From: a bacterium
GTDB lineage: Bacteria; Verrucomicrobiota; Verrucomicrobiia; Verrucomicrobiales; Akkermansiaceae
Assembly (NCBI GenBank): GCA_018222765.1
Contig: JAAEZT010000026.1
Location: forward strand, 1 to 56,708
Direction: 5' to 3'
DNA: 56,708 nucleotides
Of the stretch, positions 3,759 through 55,384 are shown piece after piece. The position numbers were made by a program, and so were the translations under genes. The stretch's first letter is position 1, and every line of letters starts with the position of its first letter. Under the pieces are notes generated by a model. That model was not told the DNA's origin, made no database searches, and saw only the letters and a program-made list of their open reading frames with translations.

Positions 3759-3879
3759 GGGCTCTCTCGTTCAGAATGGAAGATCCCACCTCGCGTGCTA
3801 AGCGGTCTTCCCAGGCCATCCAGGTGATTCGTTCTCGTCGCTCCGCCTGCCATCCCGTTCCCAGAAAAAGGAAACACCC

Positions 3880-4245
3880 ATGACGCCCACCAAAATCTGT
3901 CAGCGCTGTGGCCGCCTCATCGAGTGGCGGAAAAAATGGGAGAGCTGCTGGGACGAAGTCCGATTCTGCTCCGCCCGCTGTCGAAGGCAAAAGCCCAGCA
4001 AGATGGATCAGCAACTCGAACAAGCCATTCTCTCTCTCCTTGCCACCCGCCCCCGGGGAGCGACCATCTGTCCCAGCGAAGCTCTACAGACCCTCACCCC
4101 AGAAAAGCAGTTGCACGACCACATGGAGCAAGCCCGCCAGGCCGCCCGCCGTCTTGTCGCCCAGGGGCAGATTGAAATCCTACTCGAAGGCCAAACCGTC
4201 GACCCATCCACCGCCAAAGGCCCGATCCGTCTCCGTAAGGTCTAG
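3880..4245 (+). CDS. DUF2256-DUF3253 fusion protein
   Basis: 121 aa. Residues ~5-40 are a DUF2256 zinc-ribbon: ICQRCGRLIEWRKKWE, then WDEVRFCSARCRR, giving a C-x2-C ... C-x3-C metal site. Residues ~45-121 are DUF3253, a winged-helix-like module with LEQAILSLLATRPRGATICP, a mostly helical middle (HMEQARQAARRLVAQGQIEI) and a C-terminal KGPIRLRKV. Both domains have unknown biochemical roles; their shape suggests DNA or RNA binding. It follows the TIGR03643 gene after 121 bp. In other bacteria these families often sit near photolyase/cryptochrome-type genes, but none lies in this window. Confidence 0.85.
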   Translation: MTPTKICQRCGRLIEWRKKWESCWDEVRFCSARCRRQKPSKMDQQLEQAILSLLATRPRGATICPSEALQTLTPEKQLHDHMEQARQAARRLVAQGQIEILLEGQTVDPSTAKGPIRLRKV

Positions 4246-4354
4246 CCGATGCAACTCCCAGCCAAATGGACATCCGGCGCGATGACAAGCGGCCTCCGAT
4301 TCACCCGTTTGCACCTGCCTGCCTCATTATCCGGGCTGAAGCCAGGCTCCGTCG

Positions 4355-6529
4355 TTATTTCCCGAGGAGGGTTTTCATTCCTTCGCCAAGGGATTTGCCG
4401 ATGAGGTATTGCGTTTCGCCATTTTGGTTCCAGTGGAAGCCCTGGTTCTGGGGTGAAACGTTGGCTTCGCGCCAGAATGGGCGGGTGTCGGCGGCGGAGA
4501 CATTGCCGTTGAATTCGGGGTAGAGGACGGGGTTGGCGACGGCGAGTTGACCTTCGAGCATGATGAGCCGGTTGCCGGAGGCGGAGGCCCCGCTGATGCC
4601 GGTATTGGCGACGGCGAAGGGTAGGGTGGGATTTCCCAACTCGGCGCGGATGTCGCGGATGAAGTCGGCGAGATTTTCCTGGTAGCTGGAGGCGGTGAAT
4701 TCGTTGCCGCCGTCGTTCCAGCCCTGATGCCAGGCGAAGCCGGCGATTTGATATCCTTGTCCGGCGAACTGGGGGAATTCCGTGGAGAGATTATCAAGGA
4801 CGGCGTGGACGTAGTCGATGAGGCCGAGGTAGTAGTTGCCCACTTCACCACCGCGTTTGGCGACGGCCCCGGGTGAGCGGAAGTCAGCGTAGAGGCTCTT
4901 GCCGCCCCAGCAGGTTTTGATGATGAGGACGGGTTCGTCATAGGAATCGCCGATGGTCCAACCGAATCCCATTTCGGGGCCGATGCGGGCGTCGTCGACA
5001 CCGAATTCGGGAAGAAGCGGGCCTTTCTTGATGTTGGCGCCCTGGGTGAGGTCGTTGCGGTTGTAGTAGACTTGGACGTCGTCACGGGCGATCCAGTTGT
5101 TGGCACCGTCGACGAGCATGCCGTAGTTGGCGGGATCGTCGGTTGTTTCGTAGCGGAGGCTTCCGATGGCGCCGTTGACGCCGCCATTTCCGGTTTCGCT
5201 TCGGCCGTGGCCCTGCATATTGGATTGACCGGCGAGGATGAAGACTTTCACGCCGTTGGGATTGTTATCCCAGGTACGGAAGACGGAGGAAGTTGCTCCG
5301 GTCAGCGGGCGACCGGCGAGGTCGGTGAGGCCGTTCGTCTCGAGGGTGTATTCCGAATTGAGGCTGAGAGGGAAGGCGATGGTTAGAATGACGGTGTTGG
5401 GGGTGTCGCCGATGACGGCCGAGGAGATGGGCAGGAGGGCATCGCCTCCGACGATCAGGGAATAGTTGAAAGGCCGGGTCGCGAGGTCGGGATCCATTGC
5501 TTCGGAGAAGGTGAGATTGACGGTGGTGCCATTTCCCCAAACTCGGTCGAGAGTGGGATCGCGAAGGTCGGGTTCGCCGACGCGGAAGTAGAGGGTCTCT
5601 GCCCCCGGGTTGGGATTGTCAAAGGGGCCGAAGCTTGTGAGTGCGCCATCAGGATTGGCTTCAACCGCGGGAGCGATTCCCGGTTGAAAGGTTACGAGGT
5701 CCTCGGACCAATAGAGGCCGTAAAATTCGCCGGGATTTGATTTCCAGGTCAGGGTGATTTCGTCGGTGGTGTCATCATACGAAACGTCGGCGACTTCGAG
5801 TGGTTGGCGGACGGCGTCGCTTTCGACGATCTGGATACCGGTGGGTCCGATGTGGTTGAAGCCGTTGCCCCAGACCTGCGCGGTGAAGGATCCTCCGCCG
5901 AGGCCTTTGTAGACCATATAGTTTCCGGGAGTTTCGGCCCCGGTGATTTCGGTAAAGGTGCCATTAAAAGCGCCGGAGAGGAGGGTGAAGTCGGCTTCGG
6001 GTGCGCCATTGACGACGATCTTACCGGTGCCATCGCCGAATTGATCGCGGTTGGCGCCAAGATAGAAAACGACGTCGAAGGTATCGAAGGGAATGTCGGT
6101 GACAATGATGTCGAAGATGTTGGAACCATCGCCGGGGTCATTGGTGGAGTTCGCATGGCCATCCATGAGGTTGGCGTTGCCGTTGCCAAGCAGGGTGGTG
6201 CGGGGAGGATTCCAGATGTAGGGTCCACCGTTTCGGCAATCATTGAGGGTGAAGGTGGCGGTGGATCCTTCAGTGCCGGTGAGGGTGACGGCGGGACGCG
6301 GGGAGTTGGGAGCCCAGGGGAGTTCGTAGTTTTGCCAGCCAGAGGTTTGCCAATCTCCGAAGCCGGCCGAATCAGTTGGGGAGAGAGTCATGAGCGGCTC
6401 CCAACCGGCCTTACCAAGTCCTCCTCCTCCCTCACGCCAGAAGTTGACGCTAATGATTTCGACAGCGGGCAGGAAAGTCGTGGTGGCGAGGGAGATCCCG
6501 GCAAGAAGGAAGGTGTGTGATCGGTTCAT
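4355..6529 (-). CDS. Secreted SASA-type carbohydrate esterase (sialate O-acetylesterase-like)
   Basis: 724 aa from the ATG at 6529, chosen because MNRSHTFLLAGISLATTTFLPAV is a signal peptide. Residues ~25-235 are a Gly-rich beta domain of unknown type, ~245-320 resemble a fibronectin-like module, and ~325-415 an Ig-like SbsA/Big_5 module (TVNLTFSEAMDP ... LTDLAGRPL). The catalytic SASA domain fills ~425-724. It has the nucleophile block FILAGQSNMQGHG (Ser ~436), the middle block FAWHQGWNDGG (600-606) and the C-terminal catalytic His in GFHWNQNGETQYLIG (~699). The family removes acetyl groups from sialic acids or plant and marine polysaccharides; the exact substrate is not readable. It is monocistronic, convergent with the DUF2256-DUF3253 gene. 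Confidence 0.88.
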   Translation of the reverse strand: MNRSHTFLLAGISLATTTFLPAVEIISVNFWREGGGGLGKAGWEPLMTLSPTDSAGFGDWQTSGWQNYELPWAPNSPRPAVTLTGTEGSTATFTLNDCRNGGPYIWNPPRTTLLGNGNANLMDGHANSTNDPGDGSNIFDIIVTDIPFDTFDVVFYLGANRDQFGDGTGKIVVNGAPEADFTLLSGAFNGTFTEITGAETPGNYMVYKGLGGGSFTAQVWGNGFNHIGPTGIQIVESDAVRQPLEVADVSYDDTTDEITLTWKSNPGEFYGLYWSEDLVTFQPGIAPAVEANPDGALTSFGPFDNPNPGAETLYFRVGEPDLRDPTLDRVWGNGTTVNLTFSEAMDPDLATRPFNYSLIVGGDALLPISSAVIGDTPNTVILTIAFPLSLNSEYTLETNGLTDLAGRPLTGATSSVFRTWDNNPNGVKVFILAGQSNMQGHGRSETGNGGVNGAIGSLRYETTDDPANYGMLVDGANNWIARDDVQVYYNRNDLTQGANIKKGPLLPEFGVDDARIGPEMGFGWTIGDSYDEPVLIIKTCWGGKSLYADFRSPGAVAKRGGEVGNYYLGLIDYVHAVLDNLSTEFPQFAGQGYQIAGFAWHQGWNDGGNEFTASSYQENLADFIRDIRAELGNPTLPFAVANTGISGASASGNRLIMLEGQLAVANPVLYPEFNGNVSAADTRPFWREANVSPQNQGFHWNQNGETQYLIGKSLGEGMKTLLGK

Positions 6530-6658
6530 TTTTAGACGGAGACTGTAGCTGAGTAAAATGAGATGGAAAATGTAATAATGGAGGGGCAACCTGTTCGTTA
6601 TTGAGGCGCTTTTGATGCGAACCTAGGGTGTGGGAGACGGATTTCCGCGTCGAGATTC

Positions 6659-8095
6659 TCATGAGCCGACCACTCGCTTTTCCCAATCAGTGCCGTCGTG
6701 AATCAAGTGATGGGTGAGGCAGTCGAGGTGGTCCTCGGGCTCGTGGGTGATGTAGAGGAGTTGGGTGAGTCCGGTGGCAACGATGCGGTCGATGACGCGA
6801 AGGACGAGAGCCCGATTAATGCCGTCGAGTCCCTGGCAGGGTTCGTCGAGGATGAGGAGTGGCGGTTGTTTGACGAGAGCGCGGGCGATGAGGAGGAGGC
6901 GTTGTTGCCCGAAGCTCAGCGAGCGGAACGGTTGGGTGGCGAGCGCGGTCATGCCGACGACTTCGAGCCACTCGCGGGCAATTTGGAGTTGGGTAGGGTT
7001 GGCTTCCTGATAAAGGCCGACACTATCGAAGAATCCTGAAACGATGACCGTGAAGGCATTGGTGCTGACGCGATATTGTTGGTGGAGAGCGGGGGAAATG
7101 ATGCCGAGGTGATTTTTGATGTCCCAGATCGTTTCGCCCTGGCCCCGGCGCATTCCCATTACCGTGACGTCGTTGGAATAACACTGGGTGTGGTCACCGC
7201 TGACGAGGTTGACGAGTGTGGATTTTCCACAGCCGTTGGGCCCGCTGATTTTCCAATGATGACCACGTTCAACGAGCCAGTCGAATGAGGAAATGATTTC
7301 GCGGCCACCATGCACCACGGTGACCTGCTTCATCGAAACGAGGGGTCCGGTCCAGGTGGCGGGAGCGATGGAGGGATCGCGGGAAGGAAGGGTGTCGATT
7401 TCGCAATCGAGCTCCATAAGTTGGGTGAAGGCGGGATTATTTTCGACTTCGTTTTTTGTGCCGGAGAGGACGCATTCGTTCTGATCGGCACAGGCGAGAT
7501 GCGTGGCGAGGTCATCGAGGTCACCGAGGCGATTGGCGACGATAACGAGGGTAATGGTCTTGGCATACTCCCGGAGAAGGTCGGTGAGATGGGCCCGGAA
7601 TTGTTGGTCGAGACCGTCGAATGGTTCGTCGAGGATGAGGAGATCGGGGGAGAGAATGAGCGCTCGTGCCAGCATGAGGCGGCGACGTTCTCCGGTAGAG
7701 AGGAGGCGGAATCCGCGGTCGGTGAGATCGGCGAGGCCGAGTTCGGTAATGAGATCATCGAGTGGCGGAGAGTTGTCCGGTTGAACTTCGTGGATGAGTT
7801 CGAGGACGGTTCTGCCCGGGTCGATTTTGTCGAGGAACTCGCTGTCGTCTTCGCGGATTTCGCGGGCAAGGAGCGCGTCTTCGAGCTCGAAGGAAAGATG
7901 GCCGATCTGCGTGAAGGTGGTGGAGCGTTGCCCGGAAGAGAGGCCATCTCCTTCGGCGAGCATGTCGCCGAGATGCGATTTGCCGCCGGCATTGCGTCCG
8001 ACGATGCCCCAGGTTTCTCCGGAGGAAATGGTGAGCTCGTCAAGCTTCACGCAAGTGCTTGTGGACGGCGTATTTTTGAGAGTGATGGAGGGCAT
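6659..8095 (-). CDS. modF: ModF-like twin-domain ABC ATPase
   Basis: 478 aa with two ABC ATPase cassettes and no membrane segment. Cassette 1: Walker A GRNAGGKSH (33-41), signature LSTGE (132-136), Walker B LLILDEP (152-158). Cassette 2: Walker A GPNGCGKST (285-293), signature LSFGQ (393-397), Walker B LLILDEP (413-419). Several stretches closely follow E. coli ModF as I remember it, such as YSNDVTVMGMRRGQGETIWDIK, YRVST and SGFFDSVGLYQ. ModF accompanies molybdate uptake genes in enterobacteria, but no modABC is present here, so a molybdate role is not supported by context. The first Walker A ends in Ser-His instead of Ser-Thr, a mild deviation. It ends the minus-strand run and starts 3 bp after dnaB stops. 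Confidence 0.85.
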   Translation of the reverse strand: MPSITLKNTPSTSTCVKLDELTISSGETWGIVGRNAGGKSHLGDMLAEGDGLSSGQRSTTFTQIGHLSFELEDALLAREIREDDSEFLDKIDPGRTVLELIHEVQPDNSPPLDDLITELGLADLTDRGFRLLSTGERRRLMLARALILSPDLLILDEPFDGLDQQFRAHLTDLLREYAKTITLVIVANRLGDLDDLATHLACADQNECVLSGTKNEVENNPAFTQLMELDCEIDTLPSRDPSIAPATWTGPLVSMKQVTVVHGGREIISSFDWLVERGHHWKISGPNGCGKSTLVNLVSGDHTQCYSNDVTVMGMRRGQGETIWDIKNHLGIISPALHQQYRVSTNAFTVIVSGFFDSVGLYQEANPTQLQIAREWLEVVGMTALATQPFRSLSFGQQRLLLIARALVKQPPLLILDEPCQGLDGINRALVLRVIDRIVATGLTQLLYITHEPEDHLDCLTHHLIHDGTDWEKRVVGS

Positions 8096-49616: not shown

Positions 49617-49706
49617 GGACAGATGGCAGAGTGGTCGAATGCGCACGCTTGGAAAGCGTGTGATGCAGCAATGTATCCGAGGGTTCGAATCCCTCTCTGT
49701 CCGCCA
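49617..49706 (+). tRNA. tRNA-Ser (GGA)
   Basis: A 90-nt class II tRNA. The acceptor GGACAGA pairs with TCTGTCC, the anticodon stem ACGCT/CGTGT (with one non-Watson-Crick pair) holds loop TGGAAAG (anticodon GGA), a long variable arm follows, and the T-arm is GAGGG-TTCGAAT-CCCTC. Discriminator G and CCA are encoded. Its 3' end is repeated 0.9 kb downstream at 50608-50617. Confidence 0.96.
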
Positions 49707-49707
49707 T
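49698..49707 (+). repeat. Direct repeat, left copy (3' end of tRNA-Ser)
   Basis: TGTCCGCCAT, the last 9 bases of tRNA-Ser plus one flanking base. It is identical to the right copy at 50608-50617. The pair brackets the hsdM fragment and a small membrane protein gene and may be an att core. Confidence 0.45.
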
Positions 49708-49775
49708 TTGTATGAATTATCTGGAGGGGCTGCACCTTGCCGCTACTCTCCTTTAAGCGGACCAGTGCTGTTTGA

Positions 49776-50066
49776 GGCAAAGAACACGCCCGGCCGATCA
49801 AGCAACATGGCGAGGGTCTCGAAGACGCGCACCGCTTTCTGATACCGGACAGCTGCCACTGGAACGACGTTCATTCAACAGCTCAAAGCATCGGCGGCGC
49901 CCTAAGGCACGCCATGCGGGAGATTGAGCGGGTCAAATCCGACATTCTCTACCGCGCCTTCGGCACCGGCGACTGGGTGGATAAGGAGAAGTTCACCGAC
50001 GATCTGAACAAGGTCATCATTGAAGGCTTCTCCGCGATCGATTATAAGAAAAGATCGGTTTTATAA
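49776..50066 (+). pseudogene. hsdM: Type I restriction methylase HsdM fragment (remnant)
   Basis: A 96-codon open stretch bounded by stops at 49773 and 50064, 70 bp past tRNA-Ser. It reads as the HsdM segment just before the methyltransferase domain: EDAHRFLIPDSCHWNDV, SIGGALRHAMREIERVKSD, ILYRAFGTGDWVDKEKFTDD and LNKVIIEGFSAID. In intact HsdM this is followed by hundreds of residues with the catalytic NPPY; here the frame ends with YKKRSVL and a stop. Everything before ~residue 15 is also missing. The identification is from remembered family sequence and should be tested. No hsdR or hsdS is near, so this looks like debris from an integrated element. Confidence 0.65.
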
Positions 50067-50123
50067 TGTTCAAAATTCCTTTGCCCTGTTTTAAAATGGG
50101 GCTGGTTTAATGGGGGTAGTTAA

Positions 50124-50525
50124 ATGAAAACGAAAATTGCAAATCCCAACAAACCATGGTGCCCAGTCTGTGAGGATCATGCGGATTACGATTTGAAAGA
50201 GTGGACGACGAGTGAAGGGAGAAAAACTGCTTCGTTTTATACCTGTAATCGATGTGGTTCAGATACCTGGAAACCAACTTCACCAGGGATCTATGGATTT
50301 GTTGTGATCTTGGTTTTGGCTTTCTTGTATTTTATGGCTTTTGTTGTCGGGCCTGACGCTGGGGAGAGCCTACTTGAGATTTTGTTTGTTCAAATATGCG
50401 TGCTGGGAGTTACCTGTTACCTGGTCAGGGTGGCATGGAAAAACGCGGTTCATTGGAGAAAATTCCATAAGTGGAGAAAGAGACAGTATCAGGAATTGAT
50501 CGATGCTAGCCGTAAGCAAAAATAA
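50124..50525 (+). CDS. Small membrane protein with N-terminal zinc ribbon
   Basis: 133 aa. Cys13/Cys16 (WCPVCEDH) and Cys41/Cys44 (YTCNRCG) form a rubredoxin-like zinc ribbon, followed by two membrane segments at ~57-75 and ~84-104 and a basic C-terminal tail (WRKFHKWRKRQYQELI). No family is recognised. It lies between the hsdM fragment and the second copy of the tRNA-Ser 3' end, so it may be cargo of the former element. The codons look more A/T-rich than those of neighbouring genes. Confidence 0.6.
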   Translation: MKTKIANPNKPWCPVCEDHADYDLKEWTTSEGRKTASFYTCNRCGSDTWKPTSPGIYGFVVILVLAFLYFMAFVVGPDAGESLLEILFVQICVLGVTCYLVRVAWKNAVHWRKFHKWRKRQYQELIDASRKQK

Positions 50526-50607
50526 AAAGCGGAGGAAACATTTTATAAGCGCTTATCCTCTCCAAACTCCCTAAATCCTTATTTTTCCTCGCGAGGGAAA
50601 ATCGTTT

Positions 50608-50617
50608 TGTCCGCCAT
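50608..50617 (+). repeat. Direct repeat, right copy (tRNA-Ser 3' end)
   Basis: TGTCCGCCAT, identical to 49698-49707. Further upstream both copies also share a GAGGG block (GCGAGGG here, CCGAGGG in the tRNA), but at unequal spacing, so the match is only short. This marks the likely right edge of an element that inserted into tRNA-Ser. The rest of the 50526-50667 gap holds no gene I can support. Confidence 0.45.
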
Positions 50618-50667
50618 AACCCCCTTGCGCTTGCGTGGGCAGGGTTGTGGTTGTTAAGAGGAAAGGA

Positions 50668-52131
50668 TCAGGCCAATATATCCTTAATGACGTGTGCTTC
50701 CTCTTCCACGCCAGTTAGTCGTTGATCGAGCCCCTGGAATTTGAAGGTGAGTTTCCGGTGATCAATTCCTAAACGGTCCAGAATGGTTGCGTTAAGATCG
50801 CGGATATGGACGGGGTTCTCCACGATGTTGTAGCTGTGGTCGTCGGTTTTTCCATATTCGAAGCCCCTTTTGACCCCGGCTCCGGCCATCCACATGGAAA
50901 AGCACCGACCATGGTGGTCCCGTCCGTGGTTGTCCTTTGTGAGTTTACCTTGTGAGTATATGGTGCGGCCGAATTCACCACCCCAGACGACCAGGGTGTC
51001 TTCAAGCATGCCCCGTTGATCCAGATCATTGATGAGTGCCGCGGCCGGTTGGTCAATGTCCTCGCATTGCTGACGGATTTTCGAAGGAAGTGAGCCGTGC
51101 TGATCCCATCCACGGTGGAAGAGTTGGATGTAGCGGACTCCCTTTTCAGCCATGCGGCGGGCGAGGAGGCAGTTGCGGGCAAAGCTGCCGGGCTTGTCGA
51201 CTGCGGGGCCATAGAGTTCCTTAATTTTGTCGGGCTCACCTTCAATATCCATGAGTCCGGGGACCTCGGCCTGCATCCGGTAGGCAAGCTCGTATTGGGA
51301 AATTCGGGCCTGAATTTCAGGGTCGGCGAATTTGTCGTAATTCAACTCGTTGAGTGCCTTGAGGCTGTCGAGTTGTCCCCGGCGCGCTTCGCGGTCAAAG
51401 CCCTCGGGGTTTTTGAGGTAGAGGACTGGTTCTCCGGCACTACGGAGTTTGACGCCCTGGTGCTTGGCGGGAAGAAAACCGCTCCCCCAGAGGCGGTCGT
51501 AGAGAGCTTGTAGTTGACCTCGGCCGCGGGAAATCATGACGACATAGCCTGGCATATTTTCGTTCATCGTTCCCATGCCGTAACTCAGCCACGCCCCCAG
51601 GGACGGTTTCCCTTGTTGTTGGGCGCCGGTGTTGATGTAGGTGATGGCCGGATCATGATTCACTGCTTCAGTGTGAAGTGACTTCATGATGGTGATTTTG
51701 TCGACAATCCCGGCGGTGTGGGGAAGGAGGTCCTTGTTGACCCAGGTCTGATGCTCGCCGAATTTGCCAAACTCAAACATGGGGGCGACGCAAGGAAAGG
51801 AATTCTGTCCGCTGGACATGCCGGTGAGCCGTTGATCCTGACGAACGGAATCGGGGAGTTCGGTCCCGTGTAGTTTGCGTTGGATCGGCTTGTAGTCGTA
51901 GAGGTCGATGTGGCTGGGACCTCCGGCCATGAACATGTAAATGACCCGTTTTGCCTTTCCCGGGAAATGAGGGAGGTCGGGGAGACCGCCGTAAACTCCT
52001 CCTTCCGAAGCTGAGGCCGAACCAATCAAGCCGGGGTTGAGCAGGGTGCTCAGGGCCGCCGCCCCGAGTCCGTTACCGGATCGCAGAAGAAATTCACGAC
52101 GTGATTCAGTCAGTGGATTGAAATAATTCAT
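50668..52131 (-). CDS. DUF1501 family protein, Tat-exported
   Basis: 487 aa. The leader [20 protein letters not shown] has a twin-arginine motif (SRREFL), so it is exported. Family blocks: [94 protein letters not shown] and [15 protein letters not shown]. These resemble the alkaline-phosphatase-like fold with metal-binding Asp and His, so a sulfatase/phosphatase-like hydrolase is possible. It begins 2 bp after the upstream PSD1/cytochrome gene stops, the standard pairing in this phylum. Function in vivo is unknown. Confidence 0.92.
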
Positions 52132-52133
52132 GG

Positions 52134-55100
52134 CTAGTTGCGTGTCAGTGTTTCGTCGAGATTGAGAATGGTTTGGGCTACCACCATCCAGGCGGCGTGC
52201 TCGGCTGGGTCGATGGATTCATCGCGAGGAGAATCACCGGCGGCGAGGTATTTCTTTGCGGACTCCGGATCTTTCCGAAACCTCTCAAGATTGGCGTTTA
52301 AGAGCCTGGTGAGGATTTCCACTTCTTGTTTTTCTGCCGGGCGTGAGGTTGCAAGGCGATATCCAAGATCGATCCTTTTTTCGGGGGCACGGTCTGCCGA
52401 ATTGATTAGGCGTTGCGCCAAGACTCGCCCCGCTTCCACAAATTGTGGATCGTTTAAGGTCACGAGAGCCTGCAGTGGAGTGTTTGTCCTCTGGCGTTGA
52501 ATGACACACTTTTCACGACTTGGGGCATCGAAGATCAGCATGTTGGGCATGGGAGAGCTGCGCTTCCAGTAGGTGTACATCGAACGACGATAGAGCTTTT
52601 CCCCTTTGTCCTGACGATAGCGAAGCCCTCCGTTTAGGCTGACTTCATTCCAAATATTTGCCGGTTGATAAGGTTTCACCCCTGCTCCTCCGACCTCCTT
52701 GGTGAGGAGGCCGCTCACCGCGAGAGCCTGGTCCCTGATAAACTCACCCTGAAGACGGAATCGTGGCGCTCGGGCAAGGAGCTCATTGGCGGCATCTTTT
52801 TCGCGATGAAGCGATTCAACCCGGGAGCTGCGACGATATGTTTTGGACGAAACGATTTTCTTGATCATTCGCTTCACATTCCAGCCGCTTTTCACAAAAT
52901 CGACGGCCAGCCAGTCGAGCAATTCGGCGTGGGTGGGTGGAGTTCCTTGGGCTCCAAAATCCCCCACGGAGCGCACGAGTCCCTCTCCAAAGAGCATCAT
53001 CCAGTAGCGATTGACCGCGACCCGGGCGGTGAGGGGGTGATTCGGATTTGTCAGCCACTTAGCGAGACCGAGGCGGTTCGGCGGAGCATCTTTTGGCATC
53101 TCAGGGAGCGCATCCGGAGTTCCGGGTTTGATTACCTCATCCTTTTTGGGGGAATCATAGGCACCTCGATCGAGAACGTAGGTCATGCGCATTTTGTTTT
53201 CGGGATTGTCCTGCATGATCATTGAGGTCACGGGCTTTTTATTCAAGTCGGCCTCTTGTTTGAGAATCTTTTGATGGGCATCCGTGAGGTTTTTGAAAGT
53301 CTTGTCTTCGCCGCCGAGATACCGGGCTAGTAAAACCTTCATGTCGCTTTTGCTCCGCTGATTGGCAGGAGTGGCAAGAATGTTTTCGATTGGGTCTCCG
53401 ATCGCAGTCGCGGCGATTTCAGATTGAGGCAAAGCTCGATGATAGATCCGAAGATCATCGAGTTCTCCTTTCCAACGCGAGCTTGTGGACCTGCTTCCAA
53501 TTCGAAAAGGCTGGGACGTTACGATGGTCTCGCTGAGGTTGTCAGCCTGGACTTGGTTTTTAGACAGTTTCCCGTCGATGTAGATTTTGACTCCGGCGGC
53601 TTTACTGCTCCCATCGTATGTCAGGACGACATGTTGCCACTTCCCCTGGGTGAGTTCGTCGACTGAAATAACCTTGAGGGCATTGGATCCCCATTTGTGG
53701 ACGATGTGTGTGCCGATCCGTCCACCTTCAGTCCAGAAATCGAAGCCACGATAGGCGGCTTTGTCATCCATTTTTGAGAAGATGGCGCCAGAGGCTTTCC
53801 CATTTGGTTTCACCCATGCGCTGAAAGTGAAAGGTTTATTATGCTCAAGGTTCACCAGGGCATCGGTCTTGAAGCTGTGATTGCCGTCTAGTTTCAGTGA
53901 TTTTGATTTCTCCCGGTTACCCACCGAAAATTTTCCACGTTCGGCTACGACTGCGCTTCCAGTGACACCATCGCGGAACTCCTTGAGTGTTGCGTCGATT
54001 GGAAACCAATGGGCGAGATTTTCGGGTTGTTTGGATTGTCCCGAGGATTTGGCTTTATTGGAGGCTTTCTCAAGCCAGGCTTTGAATTCTGGGAGTTGTG
54101 AGACCTTGGCCCGATGGGCTTCGATCTTGTTTTTAGCTTCAGCGATCTCTTTCTTTAGTTGGGCTAATTTGCCGTCCCGGTCCTTGTTGGGAACTTCCAC
54201 TAAGGGAGCCTGATTGCCGTTGCGGGTCTGCATGCCGGGATCAGTGGTGTTGTTGAAGTAAGCGAAGAACTGGAAATACTCTTTCTGGGTAATGGGATCG
54301 TATTTATGGTCGTGGCATTGCGCACATTCCATGGTGAGTCCCATCCAGACATTTGCGGTGGTTTGCACCCGGTCAGCAACATACTCGACCCGGAGTTCCT
54401 CGGCAAATGCCCCTCCTTCGTCACTGGTGGCGTGGTTGCGATTAAAACCGGAGGCGATTTTTTGCTCAACCGTGGCATCGGGAATGAGGTCGCCGGCAAT
54501 CTGCTCGATCGTAAATTGGTCGAAGGGTTTGTTTGAATTATAGGCATCAATGACCCAATTGCGCCAGGGCCACATATCGCGGGGGCCATCGGCATGCATC
54601 ACGCTGGTGTCGCCATAGCGGGCCGCATCCATCCAGGCCAGAGCCATTCGTTCTCCGTAATTTTCGGACGCGAGAAGGCGGTCGACGACTTTTTCCCAGG
54701 CTTTCGGTGAGGTGTCATTGACGAAGTCCTCAACTTCTTCAGGGGTAGGGGGCAATCCGGTGAGGTCAAGAGTGACCCGACGGATCAGGGTTCGCCGATC
54801 GGCGTCAGGTTGGGGGTTGAGCCCCTCCGTCTTCAAGCGCCGGTCGATAAAGTGGTCCAAGTCGTTAATATTCGGTTCCTGTTTCGGAGAAACGAAAGAC
54901 CAGTGGTCATCATATTTAGCTCCCTCGGCAATCCAGGTCTCGAGAGTTGTGATTTGCTCGGGGGTGAGGGTCTTGTTTGCCTTGGGAGGAGGCATGAGAT
55001 CCTCGGGATCCTTGGTTTTGAGGCGGGCGACGAACTCACTCTTGGCAACATTACCGGGTGACAACACTCCAGCGTCCAAGGCGTCTTCACGTTTGTCGAG

Positions 55101-55241
55101 CCGAAGGTCACCCTTGGTCTCGCCTGGTCCATGGCATTTGAAGCAGGTATCCGAGAGGATGGGTCGAACGTCGCGGTTGAAGTCAACTGCTGCGAGGGGA
55201 AGGCTTATTGCCAGAAGGGCGAGTGAGATTGGTCCTTTCAT
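52134..55241 (-). CDS. Planctomycete cytochrome C / DUF1549 / LamG / DUF1553 protein
   Basis: 1035 aa from the ATG at 55241, where a signal peptide starts ([19 protein letters not shown]). Order: planctomycete cytochrome C domain with haem motif CFKCH (33-37, [20 protein letters not shown]); DUF1549 (~120-330; [25 protein letters not shown], and a second Cxx[14 protein letters not shown]); a LamG/concanavalin-like insertion (~400-600; [20 protein letters not shown]); DUF1553 (~690-1000; [33 protein letters not shown], and [13 protein letters not shown]). It is likely a large exported haem protein that works with DUF1501; substrate unknown. Confidence 0.92.
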
Positions 55242-55384
55242 AGGATTGAGAAATCGAATGAAGTACTGACTACCTCTGATAATTTCCACTTAAGAGGTAT
55301 CTCAATAATCCAATGTTTCAAGTTCCCTAAACGAATCCTAGAGGCTTTGTCTTGCAGGATTGGCGCAAGATGTCGGGAATTTCC

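What the first reader, a model, noticed from the sequence alone, without database searches (positions are those of the whole stretch)
49776..50066. Remnant of a type I restriction methylase (hsdM) downstream of tRNA-Ser
Seen: a stop-bounded 96-codon frame just past tRNA-Ser whose product matches, to my reading, the HsdM segment IGGALRHAMREIERVKSD ... LYRAFGTGDW ... DDLNKVIIEGFSAID. Known: type I RM genes are frequent cargo of islands that insert at tRNA genes. Inferred: the island was mostly lost, leaving one internal piece with neither the N-terminus nor the catalytic domain.
Basis: partly seen in the sequence, partly recalled or inferred. Interest (0 to 1): 0.65.

Follow-up and report, generated by a model that had tools for sequence, protein, structure and literature searches.

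The report
Decayed restriction-methylase piece beside tRNA-Ser
A roughly 320-base broken piece of a type I restriction-modification methylase gene sits next to a serine tRNA gene, probably inside a small leftover of an inserted element; it shows no sign of protein-level selection and is an ordinary gene fossil.

Summary
The frame at 49776-50063 encodes part of the N-terminal domain of a type I DNA methylase (PADLOC MTase_I 3e-13; PacII M subunits 1e-9). About residues 30-142 of about 500 remain, without the catalytic domain.

One congeneric species (G008) has the same piece at the same place with a different stop. The copies differ equally at codon positions 1, 2, 3 (16/17/16), against 45/23/98 in the neighbouring kinase gene, and diverge like adjacent intergenic DNA: a pseudogene, not a small conserved gene.

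The island idea gains support. The tRNA 3' end TGTCCGCCAT recurs 910 bp downstream (49698-49707, 50608-50617), followed by a hairpin like that directly after tRNA-Ser in G005 and G007. The stretch between holds the HsdM piece and a 133-aa ORF; a relative of that ORF is operon-like with the right-flank gene family in G079, so the ORF need not be cargo. G004 has different content beside the tRNA. No intact hsdM was found at this tRNA. Ordinary: low interest.

The parts
49617..49706 (+). tRNA-Ser (GGA), intact, presumed insertion target
   Evidence: ARAGORN; the other three matches in its own genome are 76-81% identical
49698..49707 (+). left copy of the direct repeat TGTCCGCCAT (tRNA 3' end plus one base)
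49722..50036 (+). hsdM pseudogene: codons for about residues 30-142 of an approx. 500-aa type I M subunit; TGA at 49773-49775; right edge uncertain, about 50028-50042
50124..50525 (+). 133-aa ORF between the two repeats; two CxxC pairs at the N-terminus and a hydrophobic middle (by eye); may or may not be cargo
   Evidence: in-frame indels against G008
50608..50617 (+). right copy of the direct repeat TGTCCGCCAT (displaced tRNA 3' end)
50614..50655 (+). displaced tRNA-Ser-type hairpin (CCAT, stem, GCTTGC loop, GTGG, then T-rich)
   Evidence: aligned with tRNA 3' flanks of G005 and G007; fold of 50598-50662 z = -3.1

Best explanation
A mobile element inserted by site-specific recombination at the 3' end of tRNA-Ser(GGA), regenerating the tRNA and leaving a displaced copy of the tRNA 3' end in front of the original tRNA terminator. 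It carried, or later collected, a type I M gene of the two-M (PacII-like) kind. In an ancestor of G000 and G008, or in a form passed between them, deletions cut the gene to its codons for about residues 30-142, now within about 15 bp of the tRNA on the left and fused to the upstream region of a 133-aa ORF on the right. Since then the piece has drifted without protein-level constraint and makes no methylase. Shown: homology, shared borders, different stops, flat codon-position pattern, duplicated tRNA end. Inferred: the integrase-driven insertion, the former presence of a whole gene, the order of deletions, and whether the 133-aa ORF came with the element.
For: HsdM homology; same piece and borders in G008 with a different stop; differences by codon position 16/17/16 over 318 nt against 45/23/98 in the kinase next door (chi-square p = 0.0008); dN/dS 0.75 (bootstrap 0.38-2.0) against 0.20 (0.14-0.29); divergence of the piece (0.174) like that of the intergenic DNA before the tRNA (0.183); repeat of the tRNA end, 10 bp here and 11 bp in G004, followed by a tRNA-type hairpin; different sequence after this tRNA across the genus, with a serine recombinase frame ending on the tRNA in G018 and a tyrosine integrase 4.8 kb downstream in G001; no HsdM_N or N6_Mtase match in its own 97.8%-complete genome.
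Against: No integrase in the 910 bp; no whole hsdM seen at this tRNA; the repeat is only 10-11 bp. In G079, of another family, a relative of the 133-aa ORF directly follows, on the same strand, a relative of the right-flank gene 50668-52131 and of its neighbour; so the ORF may be an old neighbour of the right flank, although in the window it faces the other way and the repeat lies between them. The dN/dS interval for the piece is wide (down to 0.38), and its divergence, like that of the intergenic DNA, is about half the kinase dS of 0.354. The G008 contig ends before the right repeat, so that border is seen only in G000 and G004. Only 2 of 20 genomes readable past this tRNA (G005, G007) show the native-type hairpin directly after it.
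Confidence: 0.85

Rival explanations
1. A short stand-alone gene: an HsdM_N-like small protein kept for its own function, for example as a decoy that binds S or M subunits.
For: The 96-codon frame is open in the window; no indels between G000 and G008 over 318 nt; the lower end of the dN/dS interval is 0.38.
Against: Different in-frame stops in the two species and a flat codon-position pattern; found in 2 of 27 genus genomes; absent from the close relative G004.
Confidence: 0.03
2. The HsdM piece came by illegitimate recombination next to the tRNA, already truncated; no tRNA-targeting element brought it. The repeat and hairpin at 50608 mark an older or separate event.
For: No integrase or other RM gene nearby; the left HsdM border lies about 15 bp past the tRNA; a TTCTCC stretch is shared at the right border (by eye); the 133-aa ORF may belong with the right flank.
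Against: The duplicated tRNA end plus hairpin bracket this stretch in the window and in G004; the site is variable across the genus.
Confidence: 0.12

Closest known systems
Type I M subunits of the two-M kind (PacII M1M2S, PDB 7vru)
   Same: Matches of 39-61 bits, together over residues 29-151 of the two M chains; the nearest intact gene found (L066, 45% identical) is the first of two adjacent M genes
   Different: Here only about 105 codons remain, with a stop; no catalytic domain, no S or R gene
Remnants of integrative elements at tRNA 3' ends
   Same: Direct repeat of the tRNA 3' end brackets the stretch, tRNA kept whole
   Different: Only 910 bp between the repeats and no integrase

Membership tests
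Type I M subunit (HsdM) | HsdM_N domain (PF12161) | tested here: met
   33.7 bits, cut-off 24.5, for the G008 copy; the window copy has 17.4 bits, below cut-off, but MTase_I at 3.2e-13
Type I M subunit (HsdM) | N6_Mtase catalytic domain (PF02384) | tested here: not met
   No N6_Mtase match at E 1e-3 in the own genome; the homology ends before that domain
Type I M subunit (HsdM) | Open, selected reading frame | tested here: not met
   Stops and flat codon-position pattern
Two-M (m6A/m4C) type I system | Two adjacent M genes | tested here: not met
   One partial M piece only; assignment to this kind rests on similarity alone
tRNA-targeted integrative element | Direct repeat of the tRNA 3' end at the far border | tested here: met
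tRNA-targeted integrative element | Integrase gene inside | tested here: not met
   The three PF00589 matches of the own genome lie on other contigs; between the repeats one search shows the 133-aa ORF and no other frame over 84 aa with a start codon. Serine recombinase families were not searched in the window.

The most novel reading that the evidence does not exclude
The fusion of the tRNA end to about codon 30 of hsdM is not a random deletion scar: elements of this genus used an attachment site lying inside the 5' part of hsdM, so that insertion or excision at tRNA-Ser itself cut the gene, a built-in way of switching off a restriction system.
Probability: 0.03. Interest if true: 0.55.

Novelty: new member of a known kind. 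Interest (0 to 1): 0.14.

Why it matters
Little beyond annotation: it should be called a pseudogene, not a gene or a defence system. It gives a two-species example of a restriction gene decaying at a tRNA insertion site, and marks tRNA-Ser(GGA) as a place to look for mobile cargo in this genus.

Tried and rejected
Conserved small gene: rejected on stops, codon-position pattern and distribution. Intact hsdM at the same tRNA in relatives: of the 10 of 27 genus genomes with an N6_Mtase match, only G018 has it on the tRNA-Ser contig, 70 kb away; many contigs end close to the tRNA, so this is not exhaustive. Genus N6_Mtase loci as source: the 8 loci held, of 18 matched places, gave at best E 0.018 to the remnant. 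A tRNA close beside the relatives' hsdM: none in 19 loci, each only 2.1-6.5 kb long. Viral contigs: no relative of the HsdM piece or of the 133-aa ORF; both scans find close relatives only. A partial tRNA hit in G008 contig 152 looked like a possible second attachment site but, by reading its sequence, is another tRNA gene. The right flank of G008 was sought with 50530-50900; its best match is 77% identical and starts at query base 141, probably a paralogue. Papers: two searches; of PMC9613975 I saw passages, of the others the listing with the start of each abstract.

Full report
Observation. The window is contig C63 of a 4.33-Mb assembly in 87 contigs, 97.8% complete. ARAGORN finds tRNA-Ser(GGA) at 49617-49706. 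The frame 49776-50066 has 96 codons and a stop. Its product matches PADLOC type I methyltransferase models (3.2e-13 and 5.6e-13), the two M chains of PDB 7vru (1.4e-9 and 7.6e-9) and class I methyltransferase genes on 3 of 72,556 plasmid records (best 2e-15). Pfam HsdM_N scores 17.4 bits, under its cut-off of 24.5, and NCBIfam gives nothing. 7vru is PacII M1M2S, a type I system with two different M subunits (PMC9613975, passages seen).

Extent. I took the 24 open frames that match the piece, from loci of the order-wide search, an earlier locus (L003) and the genome-contig scan, and ran them by tblastn against the remnant region of the window and of G008. For 21 of 24 the best hit in the window runs from 49722 or 49737 to 50033-50042 in one frame, across a TGA at 49773-49775. 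The exceptions are L066 (49737-50060) and two frames cut short at their start (49824 and 49830 to 50039). In G008, 95 codons of the same stretch are open (L046:3425-3709), score 33.7 bits with HsdM_N and align with residues 29-126 of the 499-residue 7vru_A. So the piece covers roughly residues 30-142 and lacks the catalytic domain. The nearest intact gene found is 45% identical (L066, an uncultured proteobacterium assembly by its record title); it is the first of two adjacent M genes with HsdM_N and N6_Mtase domains. In 386 genomes of the order, 24 match at E 1e-3 or better; besides the window's own and G008, the 22 others are 31-43% identical over the matched places.

Neutral decay. G008, of the same genus, has the piece in the same place between tRNA-Ser and the 133-aa ORF. 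Over 49722-50039 the two sequences are 84.6% identical with no gap. Differences by codon position are 16, 17 and 16; in the protein kinase gene on the other side of the tRNA they are 45, 23 and 98 over 468 codons; the two patterns differ with p = 0.0008. dN/dS is 0.75 (bootstrap 0.38-2.0) for the piece and 0.20 (0.14-0.29) for the kinase. The piece diverges by 0.174, the intergenic DNA before the tRNA by 0.183. Against a simple neutral reading: both values are about half the kinase dS of 0.354, the dN/dS interval is wide, and no indel has struck the piece. The window has TGA where G008 has TGG; G008 has TAG where the window has AAG at 50010-50012. The truncated form is therefore older than the two stops, and either older than the split or passed between the two lineages.

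Borders. TGTCCGCCAT, the tRNA 3' end plus one base, recurs 910 bp downstream (49698-49707 and 50608-50617). These are its only two places in the window, where shuffles give 0.12 on average; 1 of 100 shuffles had two. In G004, 94% identical over 50119-55204, the shared repeat is 11 bp (TCTGTCCGCCA). The right copy is followed by a hairpin that aligns with the sequence directly after tRNA-Ser(GGA) in G005 and G007: CCAT, a stem, a GCTTGC loop, and a closing arm with a T-rich tail. tRNA-Ser(GCT) genes of G012 and G015 have the same style of hairpin. The window hairpin folds at z = -3.1, that of G005 at z = -6.8. I infer that 49708-50617 was inserted between the tRNA and its terminator. This tRNA was found in 22 of 27 genus genomes (21 by ARAGORN, G007 by its sequence). 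In G013 and G026 the contig ends 2 bases after it, so 20 are readable; of these, by eye, only G005 and G007 have this hairpin directly after the tRNA. One of the two G019 contigs ends 6 bases after it. In G018 a large serine recombinase frame (L052:1951-3819, minus strand) ends on the tRNA (L052:2024-2113), running over it antisense; in G001 a tyrosine integrase lies about 4.8 kb downstream, its frame reaching the end of the contig. The site is thus variable and insertion-prone.

Right edge and the 133-aa ORF. A relative of this ORF in G025 shares sequence from about 50028 onwards without HsdM before it, so the last codons of the frame, about 50036-50066, probably belong to the upstream region of the ORF. 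A TTCTCC stretch stands on both sides of this border and may be the scar of the deletion (inference, by eye). The ORF has only sub-threshold family matches: a zinc ribbon (PF12760, 0.054), transcription factor S (TIGR01384, 0.016) and mitoregulin (PF22002, 0.0008), all under their cut-offs. It is found in 7 of 97 related genomes, own included, with stops in 4 of 9 places, and differs from G008 by in-frame indels. Its dN/dS is 0.49 (0.29-0.80) against G025, 0.66 (0.35-1.41) against G008 and 1.75 (0.69-6.3) against G004: weakly constrained at most. In G079, of another family of the order, its relative directly follows, on the same strand, relatives of the two right-flank genes (L057:3514-3864, 3866-5317 and 5295-6812; the middle one is 41% identical to 50668-52131). 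So the ORF may be an old companion of the right flank and not cargo. In the window, however, it faces that gene and the tRNA repeat lies between them. I cannot decide this.

G004. In place of the HsdM piece, G004 has about 955 bp between tRNA and ORF, with an ORF ending in a PEP-CTERM-like tail (name recalled, not from a call). Bases 4-52 of that segment resemble the tRNA flank of G020 (82%). So the content next to the tRNA changed even between close relatives.

Absence of a working system. No HsdM_N match and no N6_Mtase match reach E 1e-3 in the window's own genome. Ten of 27 genus genomes have an N6_Mtase match, but only the window's genome and G008 match the HsdM piece.

Verdict. The correct annotation is: hsdM pseudogene (N-terminal domain, 49722 to about 50036), probably in a 910-bp remnant of an insertion at tRNA-Ser(GGA). 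It is ordinary.

Noticed in passing
window 50124-50525; L057:3514-6812 (G079): 133-aa ORF with two CxxC pairs and a hydrophobic middle; in G079 its relative directly follows relatives of the two right-flank genes on the same strand, whereas in the window it faces them. Relatives in 7 of 97 related genomes, own included.
   Followed up: partly
L052:1951-3819 (G018): Large serine recombinase frame that ends on tRNA-Ser(GGA) of another species of the genus, running over it antisense; a likely element at the same site.
   Followed up: partly
L043:5089-6043 (G004): About 955 bp with an ORF ending in a PEP-CTERM-like tail (name recalled) stand in place of the HsdM piece in a close relative.
   Followed up: partly
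window 50668-55289: Among the 15 stretches compared, only G004 has this gene pair next to the tRNA site.
   Followed up: no
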